DNA of 58,828 nt from Gammaproteobacteria bacterium. Its GTDB lineage: Bacteria > Pseudomonadota > Gammaproteobacteria > UBA6429 > Thiohalophilaceae. Location of the stretch: assembly GCA_026197095.1 (NCBI GenBank), contig JAPHTF010000099.1:1-58828 (forward strand), given 5' to 3'. The notes beneath the pieces are model-generated. The model saw only the letters and a program-made list of their open reading frames with translations. It had not been told where the DNA came from and ran no database searches. This document shows positions 1 through 42,801 of this stretch, in pieces. The position numbers were made by a program, and so were the translations under genes. Each line of letters starts with the position of its first letter. The first letter of the stretch is position 1.

Positions 1-93
1 CAAATTGATACAAGCTATAGAAAATTCACGGGTGATGAAAAAGAAAGGAAGGTTGATAAGATTATAAAAGAGTATGAGTTAAGAGGTAAGTGA
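1..93 (+). CDS. C-terminal end of an unidentified upstream gene (partial)
   Basis: An open frame runs from the first base of the window to a TGA at 91-93. It gives 30 residues rich in Lys, Glu and Arg (ending YELRGK). The stop overlaps the GTG at 90 of the next gene as GTGA, a typical arrangement for co-transcribed genes, which supports this being a real coding tail. The family cannot be identified from so short a stretch. It could also be a chance open frame, since 30 codons is not statistically strong. Confidence 0.45.
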   Translation, partial: QIDTSYRKFTGDEKERKVDKIIKEYELRGK

Positions 94-2795
94 GTGTGAA
101 GAATATTATCTTGTTAGCTTTCTTATGTGTATTTTTTGTTTCTAGAGTCGATGCTATAGAAATCCACACTCACGCCGTTGTCACTCAGAAAGCTATAGAG
201 AGAACAATATTATTAAATAATGTTTTTCAGCGGGAGTTAGGTCTGGATGAGTATAAAGATAATTTCGGCTTAAAGTATTATGATTACGATAATGATTTAG
301 ATGTCGAAGGTAATCACTTTGTTACTCTTGTGGAAAGGAGTAATGATGATTTTGATGATGATATTATTAAAGATGATTTTAAAGAAGGTTTAAGTTCAAT
401 AAAAGCTTGGTTTATGCGCGGTGCTATCCGTGAAGATGATTGCTGGATACCTTTTGGTATTTGTAATAATCCATTGGATGATCCTGTTAATGCTATTAGA
501 CCCTTCAGTCATTTTTTTGACCCTTATAACAATATAGGACTGGTTGTTCTAGGTTTTGAACATGAAACAGCACCCAGTTGGGCATTGGGTTCTGTGGAGC
601 CATTTAAAGCTCCTATTAAACCTTTGCCTGATTATTGGAATAATCTAAATCATTATACTGTTTTTGATGCGCAGCGTGCGATGGTACGCGCATTATCGGG
701 ACAATATATTGATGATTCTGGGGAAATAATAAGTTTAGATGAGTCAGAACGTAGGGCATATTGGGCTACCACATTTAGAGCATTAGGAAATGTAGTACAT
801 CTCGTGCAGGATATGGGGCAACCTCAGCACACACGAGGTGATGCGCATAGTAAAAGAAATACGCTCGAACAACAAGTTTATGAGAAATTGACAAATGTTA
901 GAGCATTAATTGCTGATCCTGAAGAGAAGTTTAAGTGCTTTGATGAAAGCGACCCTGCTGAAAGTATTACGCCACTCAATTTTTCTTCCTATCCTGTCCC
1001 TCAATTTAATAAATATGGGGATTATTTTTCAACGCAGCCAGGTGGCAAAACTCAAGATGGCAAAGGTTTAGCGGATTATAGTAACCGTAATTTTTTTACA
1101 GCAGGAACAAATAAAGAAGCTTCTGAATTTCCAAGCCCCGATAATAAAGAGTTAATAAAATCTGATGTAAGCTTTAATAGTGCATGCGTCAATAAAAATT
1201 CTGCAAAAAAATATATTTTATATAATGGTGAAGTTGATGATGAATATGATTCAACACAAAATGCAGTACTCCCATTAACTGCACGTTCGATATGGGATAT
1301 AAAAGATGCATCTTTGCCAAAGTATGCGCTAACACTAAAAAATTATGTGGCAATGGCTGATAATTTAATCCCTCGATCAGTGTCTTATAGTGCGGGACTT
1401 ATCAATTTCTTTTTTCGTGGCCGCCTGGATGTCACAAAGTCAGAAAATACAACTGACACATCAGGCAATACTCTTGTTGCCATCACAATAAAAAATACTT
1501 CTGGGCCAGATTTTCAAATGAGCAATGGCAAGATTGAAATATTTTATGATGCAATCGTAGACGGTGAAGAAATTCGTAAACCGGTACAACTGGCTGAAGG
1601 TGAAACAGGCAATATCACTGAACTACCAAATGGTGATGAAACAACATTAAAAATTATTTTACCAGGAGATATAGATACAAATAAGGAGAATCCTTTCGTA
1701 ATCGTTTACAACGGTATCATTGGTAAAGAACCGGGTGTAGCGGGGAAGGTATTTAGCCTCTCTGAAGAAACAGCAATTTTACTTTTTTATGAAAAAGATG
1801 GAAGTACTGATTTATTAGTAAAGCGTTCAGTAGATGAAGGGAAATCATGGGAAAATGTGGATGCAACTAATTTTGCCAGTTTTAGATTATATCCGAATAG
1901 CCGCGGTTACCAGTTATTACCATCAGGTAAAGGACGAGGTCTTTTAGTTGGGACAAATAGTAGTGGAATATTTACTTTACGTACAACGGATAATGGCAAT
2001 AGCTGGGCCCCTCATCTTGAACAAGCATACGGGCAATATACCGAAGTACTAAATGTTATTAGAGCGATACATGCTGGGGATGGCCGGCTTATAACCTATA
2101 ATAATATTTATTCAGGTTCTTACAAAGTAGGTACACGTACTTATTATACTTATGATGTTGAGTTATCTGAATCATTTGACGATGGTGAAAGCTGGACCCC
2201 ATTATCTCTTCCATTTGATGTGAATGGTTCAGCTTCTCAATTATTTTACCTGGGAAATCAACATTTATATCTATTAACATCCGGTTACGATATTTATTGT
2301 GGGTGCGTAAAATCATCATGGTATGAATCATTTGATTCGGGTGAAAATTTTACTAAAGCTGAGTTCACCTATGCTGATTTGGAATGGAAATATGATTGGT
2401 ATCGCGATGCCTATGCGTTTGATGATGGCAAGATCATTACGATGAAAAATATGGGGACTCTTGATCTTTTAACTTATAATTTTGCCGTTTCACATGATGG
2501 GGGAAAAACTTTAAACATTACTGATAAAGCCTCTAAGAATGAAATGTGGCCACAGGCAGAACCGATACATATTCGCCCAATAGGACAGGGAAAATTTGTT
2601 TCTTACGTATTTGACCCCTGGACAGCATATGAGAAAGGTTATGATACCTACTATGAAGGTAGTCTCGTCTCAAAAGATCGAGGCCAGAACTGGACAGAAA
2701 TGTCACAAGGCACATTAAGTACCTGGAATGGCCCATGGTACCTAATGATGGGCGTATTGACAAAAGATGGTAATAATTTGAAATATATTCATTAA
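90..2795 (+). CDS. Secreted zinc-phospholipase C/nuclease-like protein with six Asp-box repeats
   Basis: 901 residues. Residues 1-22 are a signal peptide (hydrophobic core, cleavage near VDA), so export by Sec is expected. The N-terminal part (about 23-430) has His26/His28 close to the mature N-terminus and a metal-ligand-like cluster HLVQDMGQPQHTRGDAH at 237-253 (HxxxD then H, D, H), as in the zinc-dependent phospholipase C/S1-P1 nuclease fold. Residues about 445-550 look like an Ig-type beta sandwich. Six Asp-boxes (S/T-x-D-x-G-x-x-aromatic or Leu) follow, with their Asp at 582, 634, 697, 749, 803 and 863; the 52-63 residue spacing suggests a six-bladed propeller. The start may be GTG 90 (GTGA overlap) or GTG 96, which lies 9 nt after AGAGG (82-86). 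Substrate is unknown; secretion by the type II system encoded later in the window is possible but only inferred. Confidence 0.7.
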   Translation: MSVKNIILLAFLCVFFVSRVDAIEIHTHAVVTQKAIERTILLNNVFQRELGLDEYKDNFGLKYYDYDNDLDVEGNHFVTLVERSNDDFDDDIIKDDFKEGLSSIKAWFMRGAIREDDCWIPFGICNNPLDDPVNAIRPFSHFFDPYNNIGLVVLGFEHETAPSWALGSVEPFKAPIKPLPDYWNNLNHYTVFDAQRAMVRALSGQYIDDSGEIISLDESERRAYWATTFRALGNVVHLVQDMGQPQHTRGDAHSKRNTLEQQVYEKLTNVRALIADPEEKFKCFDESDPAESITPLNFSSYPVPQFNKYGDYFSTQPGGKTQDGKGLADYSNRNFFTAGTNKEASEFPSPDNKELIKSDVSFNSACVNKNSAKKYILYNGEVDDEYDSTQNAVLPLTARSIWDIKDASLPKYALTLKNYVAMADNLIPRSVSYSAGLINFFFRGRLDVTKSENTTDTSGNTLVAITIKNTSGPDFQMSNGKIEIFYDAIVDGEEIRKPVQLAEGETGNITELPNGDETTLKIILPGDIDTNKENPFVIVYNGIIGKEPGVAGKVFSLSEETAILLFYEKDGSTDLLVKRSVDEGKSWENVDATNFASFRLYPNSRGYQLLPSGKGRGLLVGTNSSGIFTLRTTDNGNSWAPHLEQAYGQYTEVLNVIRAIHAGDGRLITYNNIYSGSYKVGTRTYYTYDVELSESFDDGESWTPLSLPFDVNGSASQLFYLGNQHLYLLTSGYDIYCGCVKSSWYESFDSGENFTKAEFTYADLEWKYDWYRDAYAFDDGKIITMKNMGTLDLLTYNFAVSHDGGKTLNITDKASKNEMWPQAEPIHIRPIGQGKFVSYVFDPWTAYEKGYDTYYEGSLVSKDRGQNWTEMSQGTLSTWNGPWYLMMGVLTKDGNNLKYIH

Positions 2796-40743: not shown

Positions 40744-42801
40744 ATGATGAGGCAGGATGCAAGTTTAGTTTTTAAGCAATTATGGGGGTTTTTAATCACC
40801 AGTATATTTATTGCTTTTGTTTTTACCTCGTTACCCGTGAATGCAGTTAATGACAAAAAAGCTCCTGTAGCAAATAAAGTCACTTTAAACTTCAATGATA
40901 CGGATATTAGCGCAGTTATTTCTGCAGTATCAGAAATGACGGGGCGTAATTTTATTGTTGACCCACGTGTTAAGGGTAAGGTCACCGTCATCTCTCATCG
41001 CGCCTTAAAAACATCTGAAGTTTATGAGGTTTTCCTTTCCGTTTTAAAAGTACATGGCTTTGCTGCAATACCTGGAGATAATGTTACTAAAATTGTACCC
41101 GAGGTTAATGCTAAACAAGATGCGATTATTACGGGTCAAAAAACTGTTCCATTAAGTGATGAATTTATTACTCAAGTTTTAGAAATTAAAAATGTTGAGG
41201 CTGCAGAGCTTGTTCCCATTTTAAGACCCCTGGTTCCTCAGCGCGGACATTTAGCGGCTTATCCCGCTTCAAATGTTTTAGTTATTTCAGATTCCGGGGC
41301 TAATATTCGACGCTTAAAAAATATCATTAGTAGTATAGATCAGGCTACCGGTGATGACATCGAAGTCGTCGCGCTGCAACATGCCTCAGCAAGTGAAGTG
41401 GTACGAATCATTCAGCAACTCTCTTCGCAAGATCCCAAGCAAAAGAAAAATAATTTAATTGCCGACGATAGAACGAATAGTATTTTATTAGGTGGCAATA
41501 AAGCTTCACGTTTAAGAACGAAAGCGTTAATCGCACATCTTGACACACCTGTTGATGATGGCGGTTCAACTCAAGTGGTTTATTTACGTAATGCTGTCGC
41601 CAAAGATTTGGTTACAGTATTAACGGGGGTAAGTAAAAGTGTTAGCGATGCAAAAGGTAATAAGACGTCAACAACAAAGCCAGACGCGATTAGTATCCAG
41701 GCAGATGAGAATACCAATGCTTTAGTGATAACTGCACCACCTGATATTTTTAGATCTTTACGCGCGGTCATTCGTCGCCTTGATGTTCGCCGTGCGCAAG
41801 TATTAGTAGAAGCGATCATTGCTGAAGTTTCATCTAATTCAGCTCAAGAGTTTGGCATACAGTGGGCAGCTGATTCTACCGGGAAAAATGCAGTTGGCTT
41901 GGTTTCATTTGGATTGGGTAATTCTCTAACCGGATTATTGAGTGATCCACCTTCATTAGGCCCTGGTTTGAATTTGGGAGTGGGTAATTTAGAAGGCGCA
42001 AGTCGTGTTGGTGCGCTAATCAGTGCATTAAGTTCAGATGGTAAATCGAATATTCTTTCTACTCCTTCCCTATTAACATTAGATAATGAAGAAGCTGAGA
42101 TTGTTGTGGCAGATAATGTGCCTTTTCTGACCGGTTCTTATTCAGGAACAGGCGGTGGTAGTACACCTACAAATCCTTTCCAAACTATTCAGCGAGAAGA
42201 TGTGGGCTTGACACTACGCATTACTCCACAGATTAATGAAGGTAACGCGATTAAAATGAAAGTTGAGCAAGAAGTTTCATCCGTTACTTCGAGTGCTCAG
42301 GCGGTTGATTTGATTACCAATAAACGTTCACTTAAAACCAATGTTATTGTCGATGATGGTCAAATGATTGTATTGGGTGGCTTAATAAAGGAAGATTTTC
42401 AAGATACAGAGCAACGTGTCCCAGGTTTAGGTGATGTTCCTTTACTTGGTTGGTTCTTTCGTTACAACAAAACTTCTAAAATTAAAACTAACCTTATGGT
42501 GTTTTTGCAGCCTACTATATTAAAAGATGCTGCGTTGACATCCGCACATACAGGCGATAAATATAATTTCATACGTGGCCAGCAACTTAAGTTACGTGAA
42601 GATGGATTTCGACTGGCTTCCGAAGAAGATTCGCCGCTATTAGCTGAGAATAAGCAGTTTTTAACATTACCTGCGCCTTACAGTGAATCATCATTATCTG
42701 AAAGCGATGATGAAAAATTAAAAGTCATCGCAGTACCACCGACCATGATGGAGAAGGTTAATGACAAGCAGTCAGAATCAACCGATGGTGGAAAACAGTA
42801 A
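40744..42801 (+). CDS. gspD: Type II secretion system secretin GspD
   Basis: 685 residues. GspD forms the outer-membrane channel. A signal peptide covers about the first 34 residues. N0-N3 domains follow (FNDTDISAVISAVSEMTGRNFIVDPRV at the start, repeated VVALQHASASEVVRIIQQL and VVYLRNAVAKDLVTVL). The C-terminal secretin core has VPFLTGSYSGTGG, QREDVGLTLRITPQI and VPGLGDVPLLGWFFR. An acidic Ser-rich tail may be the pilotin-binding S region. gspE begins inside its last 41 nt. Confidence 0.96.
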   Translation: MMRQDASLVFKQLWGFLITSIFIAFVFTSLPVNAVNDKKAPVANKVTLNFNDTDISAVISAVSEMTGRNFIVDPRVKGKVTVISHRALKTSEVYEVFLSVLKVHGFAAIPGDNVTKIVPEVNAKQDAIITGQKTVPLSDEFITQVLEIKNVEAAELVPILRPLVPQRGHLAAYPASNVLVISDSGANIRRLKNIISSIDQATGDDIEVVALQHASASEVVRIIQQLSSQDPKQKKNNLIADDRTNSILLGGNKASRLRTKALIAHLDTPVDDGGSTQVVYLRNAVAKDLVTVLTGVSKSVSDAKGNKTSTTKPDAISIQADENTNALVITAPPDIFRSLRAVIRRLDVRRAQVLVEAIIAEVSSNSAQEFGIQWAADSTGKNAVGLVSFGLGNSLTGLLSDPPSLGPGLNLGVGNLEGASRVGALISALSSDGKSNILSTPSLLTLDNEEAEIVVADNVPFLTGSYSGTGGGSTPTNPFQTIQREDVGLTLRITPQINEGNAIKMKVEQEVSSVTSSAQAVDLITNKRSLKTNVIVDDGQMIVLGGLIKEDFQDTEQRVPGLGDVPLLGWFFRYNKTSKIKTNLMVFLQPTILKDAALTSAHTGDKYNFIRGQQLKLREDGFRLASEEDSPLLAENKQFLTLPAPYSESSLSESDDEKLKVIAVPPTMMEKVNDKQSESTDGGKQ

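What the first reader, a model, noticed from the sequence alone, without database searches (positions are those of the whole stretch)
90..2795. Zinc phospholipase C/nuclease-like domain joined to a six-Asp-box propeller
The sequence shows an exported protein with a metal-ligand cluster (His237, Asp241, His247, Asp251, His253, plus His26/His28 near the mature N-terminus), an Ig-like middle and six Asp-boxes at 52-63 residue spacing. Zinc PLC/P1-nuclease folds and Asp-box propellers are each known; I do not recall this exact combination. Six evenly spaced boxes suggest one complete propeller, perhaps for binding glycans or surfaces. A type II secretion operon lies in the same window, so this may be one of its cargoes.
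Basis: partly seen in the sequence, partly recalled or inferred. Interest (0 to 1): 0.6.

Follow-up and report, generated by a model that had tools for sequence, protein, structure and literature searches.

The report
Exported zinc phospholipase with swappable tails
The gene encodes an exported zinc enzyme of the phospholipase C type carrying a six-repeat propeller-like tail, and it belongs to a little-described three-gene unit in which relatives keep the enzyme, vary the tail, and often travel with a dedicated lipoprotein that may protect the producer.

Summary
The ORF (better start GTG 96, not 90) encodes a signal peptide, a zinc phospholipase C (PLC) fold, an Ig-like domain and six Asp-boxes. 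The model matches solved Zn-PLCs at Z 15-17 (next row 9.0), and the metal ligands are nearly invariant in 39 aligned sequences. The propeller rests on sequence only; the model failed there.

The larger finding is the unit around it. The enzyme core is constant while the C-terminal tail varies: 36 tails fall in 13 groups, with Asp-box and RCC1 types among them. Upstream lie a fast-diverging lipoprotein (LIP) and a large Ig/PKD protein with a conserved C-terminal domain. In 96 genomes, PLC and LIP profiles hit the same nine (some hits are stubs), and the gene-1 domain hits eight of those and no others. Some loci are arrays with truncated PLC copies; two genomes keep LIP beside a PLC stub or alone.

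Best reading: a secreted phospholipase effector with exchangeable targeting tails and a cognate lipoprotein, probably immunity, as in TslA/TilA. Enzyme fold and gene linkage are well supported; substrate, targeting and immunity are inferred. Type II export could not be tested.

The parts
1..93 (+). 3' end (30 codons + stop) of the upstream lipoprotein gene (LIP); the rest, and gene 1, lie on contig C173 of the same genome
   Evidence: C173 ends with 99 bases identical to window 1-99; LIP 228 aa with lipobox LSAC; profile match G000:C173 E 5.6e-64
96..155 (+). predicted signal peptide, residues 1-20 (GTG start at 96)
   Evidence: hydrophobic N-terminus (sequence; no signal-peptide program was run); model residue 21 aligns with residue 1 of solved Zn-PLCs in 8 of 12 rows, 20 or 22 in the other 4
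156..1418 (+). zinc phospholipase C-fold catalytic domain, residues 21-441
   Evidence: model 21-441 against 1p5x Z 16.8; twelve Zn-PLC entries Z 15.2-17.3; profile match to 8cqm E 5e-4
432..437 (+). E113-D114; D114 the predicted counterpart of PLC D55
   Evidence: 39 of 39; aligned with the Asp of 8cqm
510..512 (+). H139, predicted zinc ligand
   Evidence: 39 of 39
798..848 (+). H235xxxD239xxxxxH245xRxDxH251 zinc-site motif
   Evidence: H235, D239, H245, R247, H251 in 39 of 39; the block 251-260 is poorly modelled (pLDDT 48)
1416..1772 (+). Ig-like / E-set beta-sandwich, residues 441-559
   Evidence: Z 8-9 to Kir-channel cytoplasmic domains; residues 441-550 80% identical to the G003 relative
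1773..2792 (+). Asp-box tail, predicted beta-propeller
   Evidence: six Asp-boxes; BNR over its cut-off; not modelled
1827..1850 (+). Asp-box 1 SVDEGKSW
1983..2006 (+). Asp-box 2 TTDNGNSW
2172..2195 (+). Asp-box 3 SFDDGESW
2328..2351 (+). Asp-box 4 SFDSGENF
2490..2513 (+). Asp-box 5 SHDGGKTL (degenerate; loose motif only)
2670..2693 (+). Asp-box 6 SKDRGQNW

Best explanation
An exported zinc-dependent phospholipase C-type enzyme whose beta-rich C-terminal tail (here an Asp-box propeller) acts as an exchangeable binding or targeting module, made from a three-gene unit with two dedicated partners. The upstream lipoprotein (LIP) most likely sits in the producer's envelope and neutralises the enzyme there (immunity). 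Gene 1, a large predicted surface protein with a conserved C-terminal domain, probably holds or presents the enzyme. Shown by computation: fold, metal-site residues, variable tails on a constant core, linkage and co-occurrence of the three genes, LIP outlasting PLC in two genomes. Inferred: substrate, export route, tail function, LIP as immunity, role of gene 1.
For: Fold: residues 21-441 match twelve solved Zn-PLC entries at Z 15.2-17.3; the next row is 9.0; 1ca1 is Foldseek's first hit, E 9.5e-5. Profile match to 8cqm E 5e-4 over both ligand regions. Ligands nearly invariant in 39 sequences. Constant core, variable tail: 13 groups among 36 tails; Asp-box and RCC1 labels each need two changes on the core tree. 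Linkage: 39 of 39 LIP hits lie by a PLC; 63 of 64 gene-1 hits among 890 genes lie within four genes upstream of one; LIP and PLC reading frames overlap in 23 of 34 pairs, 15 by exactly 4 bases (starts as picked by script). Co-occurrence in 96 genomes: PLC 9, LIP the same 9, gene-1 domain 8 of those, none elsewhere. LIP outlasting PLC: G007 keeps a full-length LIP frame beside PLC and gene-1 remnants; G032:C16 has LIP alone in 16 kb. Arrays with truncated PLCs or tandem LIPs. LIP recombination. LIP diverges most between G000 and G003, signal peptide aside: 38% identity against 57-80% for the PLC domains and 67% for gene 1. Analogy: TslA, an N-terminal phospholipase toxin with an upstream lipoprotein immunity gene in variable copy number (PMC10730906, abstract and passages).
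Against: No activity, toxicity or binding is shown. LIP is missing upstream of the first PLC in 13 of 35 evaluable loci of L019-L062 (one of them, L025, has LIP before its second PLC) and in 25 of 26 of L063-L091, so it is not obligatory; six Nitrospira-type loci carry a small multi-TM protein in that place. Of six LIPs that precede a truncated PLC, two (first copies in L022 and L029) are broken, so retention is not strict. LIP dN/dS is below 1 where defined and dS is high or undefined, so its fast change may be relaxed constraint. Tail labels are clustered on the tree (11 changes against a shuffled mean of 16.5), two changes for a two-row label is what any shuffle gives, and the second RCC1 row (L051) is a very long branch. 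Apart from 1ca1 and 2wxu, Foldseek's 50 listed rows are potassium channels matching the Ig-like part. The H251 region is poorly modelled. The window has Ile at mature position 1, where 37 of 38 have Tyr, Phe or Trp.
Confidence: 0.5

Rival explanations
1. LIP is a secretion chaperone or outer-membrane anchor for the enzyme, not an inhibitor; the unit builds a surface-displayed exoenzyme.
For: A strict lipobox is found in 21 of 39 LIPs, none of them with Asp at +2, and a Cys at that place is nearly invariant in 27 aligned LIPs; coupling to PLC; co-occurrence; correlated divergence LIP-PLC r 0.58 in 23 triplets.
Against: LIP kept without a full PLC in G007 and G032:C16; PLC without LIP in many loci.
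Confidence: 0.27
2. A scavenging exoenzyme: the tail binds detritus or cell surfaces and the enzyme releases phosphate or lipids; no antagonism, arrays are duplication debris.
For: Nearly all records are MAGs by title, not host-associated isolates; beta-helix, FG-GAP and Ig domains of gene 1 suit surface binding.
Against: Does not explain why a lipoprotein partner is kept where the enzyme is lost, or its fast divergence.
Confidence: 0.2
3. A nuclease of the S1/P1 branch rather than a phospholipase; the two share the fold and metal site.
For: The His lies six residues into the mature protein, as I recall for P1 nuclease; S1-P1_nuclease matched 1 of 39 members at E 0.099.
Against: All twelve top rows are phospholipases C; Zn_dep_PLPC matched 5 of 39 members (best E 0.0035); profile match to a PLC. 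The scores shown for PF00882 are below its cut-off.
Confidence: 0.12

Closest known systems
Zinc-dependent bacterial phospholipases C (B. cereus PC-PLC 1ah7, Listeria PLC 8cqm, C. perfringens alpha-toxin 1ca1)
   Same: Fold, N-terminal residue aligned at the metal site, HxxxDxxxxxH core, predicted export; alpha-toxin also joins the enzyme to a C-terminal beta domain (the last recalled)
   Different: 14-16% identity over the aligned core, long insertions, below the Pfam PF00882 cut-off where scores were shown, variable tails, two partner genes; H251 appears to replace the His of the usual HxxxE pair (inferred)
TslA/TilA (type VII-secreted phospholipase A toxin and lipoprotein immunity, PMC10730906)
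   Same: Enzyme at the N-terminus, another function at the C-terminus, lipoprotein gene directly upstream, variable copy number of the lipoprotein
   Different: Different enzyme (phospholipase A with Ser, Asp and His active-site residues), Gram-positive T7SS; immunity demonstrated there, only inferred here
Polymorphic toxin systems, including Tox-HET-C (PMC3482391)
   Same: Recombining cassettes; HET-C was proposed there to share the PLC/S1-P1 fold and active site
   Different: There the C-terminal toxin varies; here the enzyme is constant at the N-terminus and the tail varies
Asp-box / Vps10 / sialidase-type propellers (Pfam BNR, Sortilin-Vps10)
   Same: Asp-box repeats at 52-63 residue spacing
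   Different: No glycosidase signature was tested; fold not modelled

Membership tests
Zinc-dependent phospholipase C (PF00882 superfamily) | PLC alpha-helical fold | tested here: met
   Z 15.2-17.3 to twelve PLC entries, residues about 21-441
Zinc-dependent phospholipase C (PF00882 superfamily) | Three-zinc ligand set (B. cereus W1, H14, D55, H69, H118, D122, H128, H142, E146; recalled) | tested here: inconclusive
   Counterparts of D55, H69, H118, D122, H128 and E146 aligned and conserved; H26 and residue 21 by position; no direct H142 counterpart, H251 inferred and in a poorly modelled stretch; no coordinates read
Zinc-dependent phospholipase C (PF00882 superfamily) | Curated Pfam score reached | tested here: not met
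   Window: no PF00882 hit; 5 of 39 members at E <= 0.1, best 0.0035; scores shown for L062 (16.0) and L070 (19.4) are under 26.8 bits
Zinc-dependent phospholipase C (PF00882 superfamily) | Hydrolysis of phospholipid | not testable with these tools
   needs an assay
Asp-box beta-propeller | Repeated Asp-boxes at blade spacing | tested here: met
   six boxes, 52-63 apart; BNR 29.9 against cut-off 27 bits
Asp-box beta-propeller | Closed propeller fold with one blade per box | tested here: inconclusive
   pLDDT 31-62 over the tail
Type II secretion substrate | Export needs the Gsp machinery | not testable with these tools
   GspD co-occurrence uninformative: 8 of 9 genomes with a PLC hit, 67 of 96 overall
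Effector-immunity pair | Adjacent, co-occurring partner gene | tested here: met
   for the loci that have LIP; LIP is absent from many other PLC loci
Effector-immunity pair | Partner neutralises the enzyme | not testable with these tools
   needs binding and toxicity assays

The most novel reading that the evidence does not exclude
An effector-immunity system that my searches did not find described, spread over Pseudomonadota and Nitrospirota and, in reduced form, in Planctomycetota and Patescibacteria: a constant zinc phospholipase toxin at the N-terminus whose targeting tail is exchanged between propellers, RCC1 and other folds, guarded in many Pseudomonadota and some Nitrospirota by a lipoprotein encoded just upstream. 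It reverses the usual polymorphic-toxin rule of constant carrier and variable toxin.
Probability: 0.38. Interest if true: 0.82.

Novelty: new variant of a known kind. Interest (0 to 1): 0.64.

Why it matters
The enzyme core, LIP and the gene-1 C-terminal domain reach no curated Pfam cut-off in the scores I saw, and the core none in NCBIfam, so these units would largely go unannotated. If LIP is immunity, this would be a secreted phospholipase weapon whose target range evolves by changing a binding tail rather than the toxin, present in uncultured Gammaproteobacteria and Nitrospirota and, without LIP, in Patescibacteria, many of which live attached to other bacteria (recalled). If LIP is an anchor or chaperone, it is still a new dedicated partner of a well-studied enzyme family. 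Two cultured isolates carry whole units (Ramlibacter sp. WS9, L036; Microbulbifer variabilis ATCC 700307, L059), so it can be tested.

Tried and rejected
Single-sequence structure prediction of the whole protein failed (pLDDT 31); the second and last job used a 39-row alignment, so neither the tail alone, nor LIP, nor complexes could be modelled. P1 nuclease is not among the 50 rows shown; that does not exclude it.

PDB sequence search with the single protein gave no convincing hit (best E 0.015). Profiles of the gene-1 C-terminal domain and of LIP found no convincing solved relative (best E 0.015, to designed proteins, and 0.26). 'NTF2-like' for the gene-1 domain rests on weak Pfam hits (DUF4878 in 6 and DUF4864 in 3 of 30 members at E <= 0.1; that these belong to the NTF2-like group is recalled), so I keep it as a guess. 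LIP resembles carboxypeptidase regulatory-like domains in 20 of 27 members at E <= 0.1 (best 1.9e-6).

T2SS co-occurrence was uninformative. Viral contigs: 103 pattern matches, no relative. Phages: none. Plasmids: one record, query residues 164-276, with no annotated feature under it. PADLOC: none at E <= 0.01 for the three proteins of the window's unit. NCBIfam: four families, each matching one of 39 members at E 0.0089-0.098, none meaningful. Paper searches listed no paper that, from titles and abstract starts, describes this unit; searches returned nothing. Only PMC3482391 and PMC10730906 were opened, as passages.

Prevalence: the single protein found only itself among 398 phylum genomes; the profile found 5 of 398, the window's own and four weak matches of 47-61 positions.

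Rows dropped: the tree left out partial or short rows (L037-L041, L048, L050, L052-L054, L057, L059, L061 and truncated copies). I labelled L020 Asp-box and L056 type A by eye, although the clustering kept each apart. Tail clustering covered L019-L062 and the window only and left out three tails under 40 residues. One search set aside 9 of 44 loci (L019-L062) and 3 of 29 (L063-L091) as not evaluable; L024's PLC was missed there by my gene picker. G037 and G071:C328 end at a contig edge beside LIP, so they do not count as orphan LIPs; G032:C38 is partial. The truncated PLC of L030 is an identical copy of the start of the full one and could be an assembly artefact.

Full report
THE PROTEIN. The ORF at 90-2795 is real. 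A GAGG at 83-86 favours GTG 96, giving 899 residues; I use that numbering (reader = mine + 2). The window begins at the start of contig C89, whose first 99 bases are the last 99 of contig C173 of the same genome. There lie gene 1 (878 residues from its Met; Ig-like Big and glucodextranase-B domains) and a 228-residue lipoprotein (LIP) whose stop codon is at window 91-93.

CATALYTIC DOMAIN. Single-sequence prediction failed. With 39 sequences, 36 of the 53 ten-residue blocks from 21 to 550 are at pLDDT 84 or more and the rest at 47-83; the tail blocks are at 31-62. The second-look structure alignment puts 12 phospholipase C entries on top at Z 15.2-17.3, with model residue 21 (the predicted mature N-terminus) on PLC residue 1 in 8 rows, 20 or 22 in the other 4; the next row is Z 9.0. 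In Foldseek's own list 1ca1 is first (E 9.5e-5) and 2wxu 33rd, but the other 48 listed rows are potassium channels matching the Ig-like part. A family profile matches Listeria PLC at E 5e-4 for the whole chain, over both ligand regions, each weak on its own. H26 (38 of 38), E113, D114, H139, H235, D239, H245, R247 and H251 (39 of 39) and E263 (33 E, 6 H) are conserved; mature residue 1 is Tyr, Phe or Trp in 37 of 38, Ile in the window. No PF00882 hit is seen for the window's protein. Residues 441-559 form an Ig-like/E-set domain (Z 8-9).

TAIL. The Asp-box tail occurs in the window, in G003 (L019, 75% identical over the tail) and, by my reading, in L020.

RELATIVES. One genome scan gave 73 loci. 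The enzyme core is shared; in the window and L019-L062, 36 tails fall in 13 groups, among them Asp-box, RCC1 (L022 by Pfam; L051 by clustering) and two larger unnamed groups of 17 and 5. Four proteins scanned from loci mostly titled Patescibacteria carry lamin-tail domains, one of them also fn3 and beta-helix. On a 34-row tree of the core, 11 tail labels need 11 changes (minimum 10, shuffled mean 16.5); Asp-box and RCC1 each need two. So tails are largely inherited with the core and sometimes exchanged; long branches (L051 above all) make parts of the tree unsure.

THE UNIT. Gene 1 lies upstream of the first PLC in 33 of 35 evaluable loci of L019-L062 and 24 of 26 of L063-L091; LIP in 22 of 35 and 1 of 26. 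63 of 64 gene-1 hits among 890 genes lie within four genes upstream of a PLC, and 39 of 39 LIP hits by a PLC (these loci were fetched around PLCs, so this shows position rather than exclusivity). Exclusivity was tested in 96 genomes, the own included: PLC 9, LIP the same 9, gene-1 domain 8 of them (not G032), none elsewhere; the PLC hits of G007, G032 and G037 are short. LIP and PLC frames overlap in 23 of 34 pairs, with starts picked by script. Divergence of the three genes is correlated in 23 triplets (Spearman 0.49-0.58), as common descent would also give. The unit has different downstream neighbours in the window (mraZ and the cell-division cluster, my reading) and in G003 of the same genus (other genes), so it may move as a block.

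ARRAYS AND ORPHANS. Six loci (L020, L022, L025, L029, L030, L040) hold truncated PLC copies followed by a further LIP-PLC. L044 has three LIPs before one PLC; L058 has three whole units. Of six LIPs that precede truncated PLCs, four are intact and two broken. In G007 (same genus) LIP has a full-length frame while gene 1 and PLC are stubs, the PLC stub ending at a stop followed by a terminator-like hairpin (my reading); in G032:C16 LIP stands alone in 16 kb. The LIP of G032:C38 is a mosaic: its 5' half matches the third LIP of G022 (73%) and its 3' half plus the PLC start the second (78%). Such patterns suit effector-immunity loci (from general knowledge) but are few here, and most genomes are MAGs in which arrays may be misassembled.

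MECHANISM. Most likely the enzyme is exported, its tail docks on a target surface, and the zinc site cleaves phospholipid head groups; LIP guards the producer. The closest logic is TslA/TilA, where an N-terminal phospholipase toxin is neutralised by a lipoprotein encoded just upstream in variable copy number (PMC10730906, abstract and passages). The 2012 polymorphic-toxin survey (PMC3482391, passages) linked HET-C to the PLC/S1-P1 fold; the systems it surveys are described by their diverse C-terminal toxin domains. The rivals (chaperone or anchor; scavenging enzyme; nuclease) remain open.

VERDICT.

Noticed in passing
L063-L091 (mostly titled Patescibacteria, Parcubacteria, Paceibacterota and kin): Large predicted secreted proteins with the same zinc-PLC domain at the N-terminus and, in the four scanned, lamin-tail domains; 24 of 26 evaluable loci have upstream a gene resembling the gene-1 C-terminal domain, small and with an N-terminal membrane segment in the four I read.
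   Followed up: partly
L048-L050, L052, L053, L055 (Nitrospira-type MAGs): A 96-127 residue protein, multi-TM by my reading, takes the place of the lipoprotein between gene 1 and PLC.
   Followed up: no
L109 (G032:C38) against L022 (G022:C58): Mosaic lipoprotein gene joining halves of two neighbouring cassettes, a sign of recombination inside these arrays.
   Followed up: yes
L075:9722-20422: A frame of at least 3567 residues in a Nitrospirae MAG begins with the PLC domain and follows a LIP gene.
   Followed up: no
L113:5001-5338 (NZ_CP035703.1): Fragment of the PLC domain without an annotated feature on a 17-kb Pseudolysobacter plasmid.
   Followed up: partly
L111:2586-4094 (G022:C140): LIP-like domain at the N-terminus of a 503-residue frame, a possible fusion or other use of the domain.
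   Followed up: no
window 40885-42531: GspD of a type II secretion operon, over the curated cut-off (566.5 bits).
   Followed up: partly
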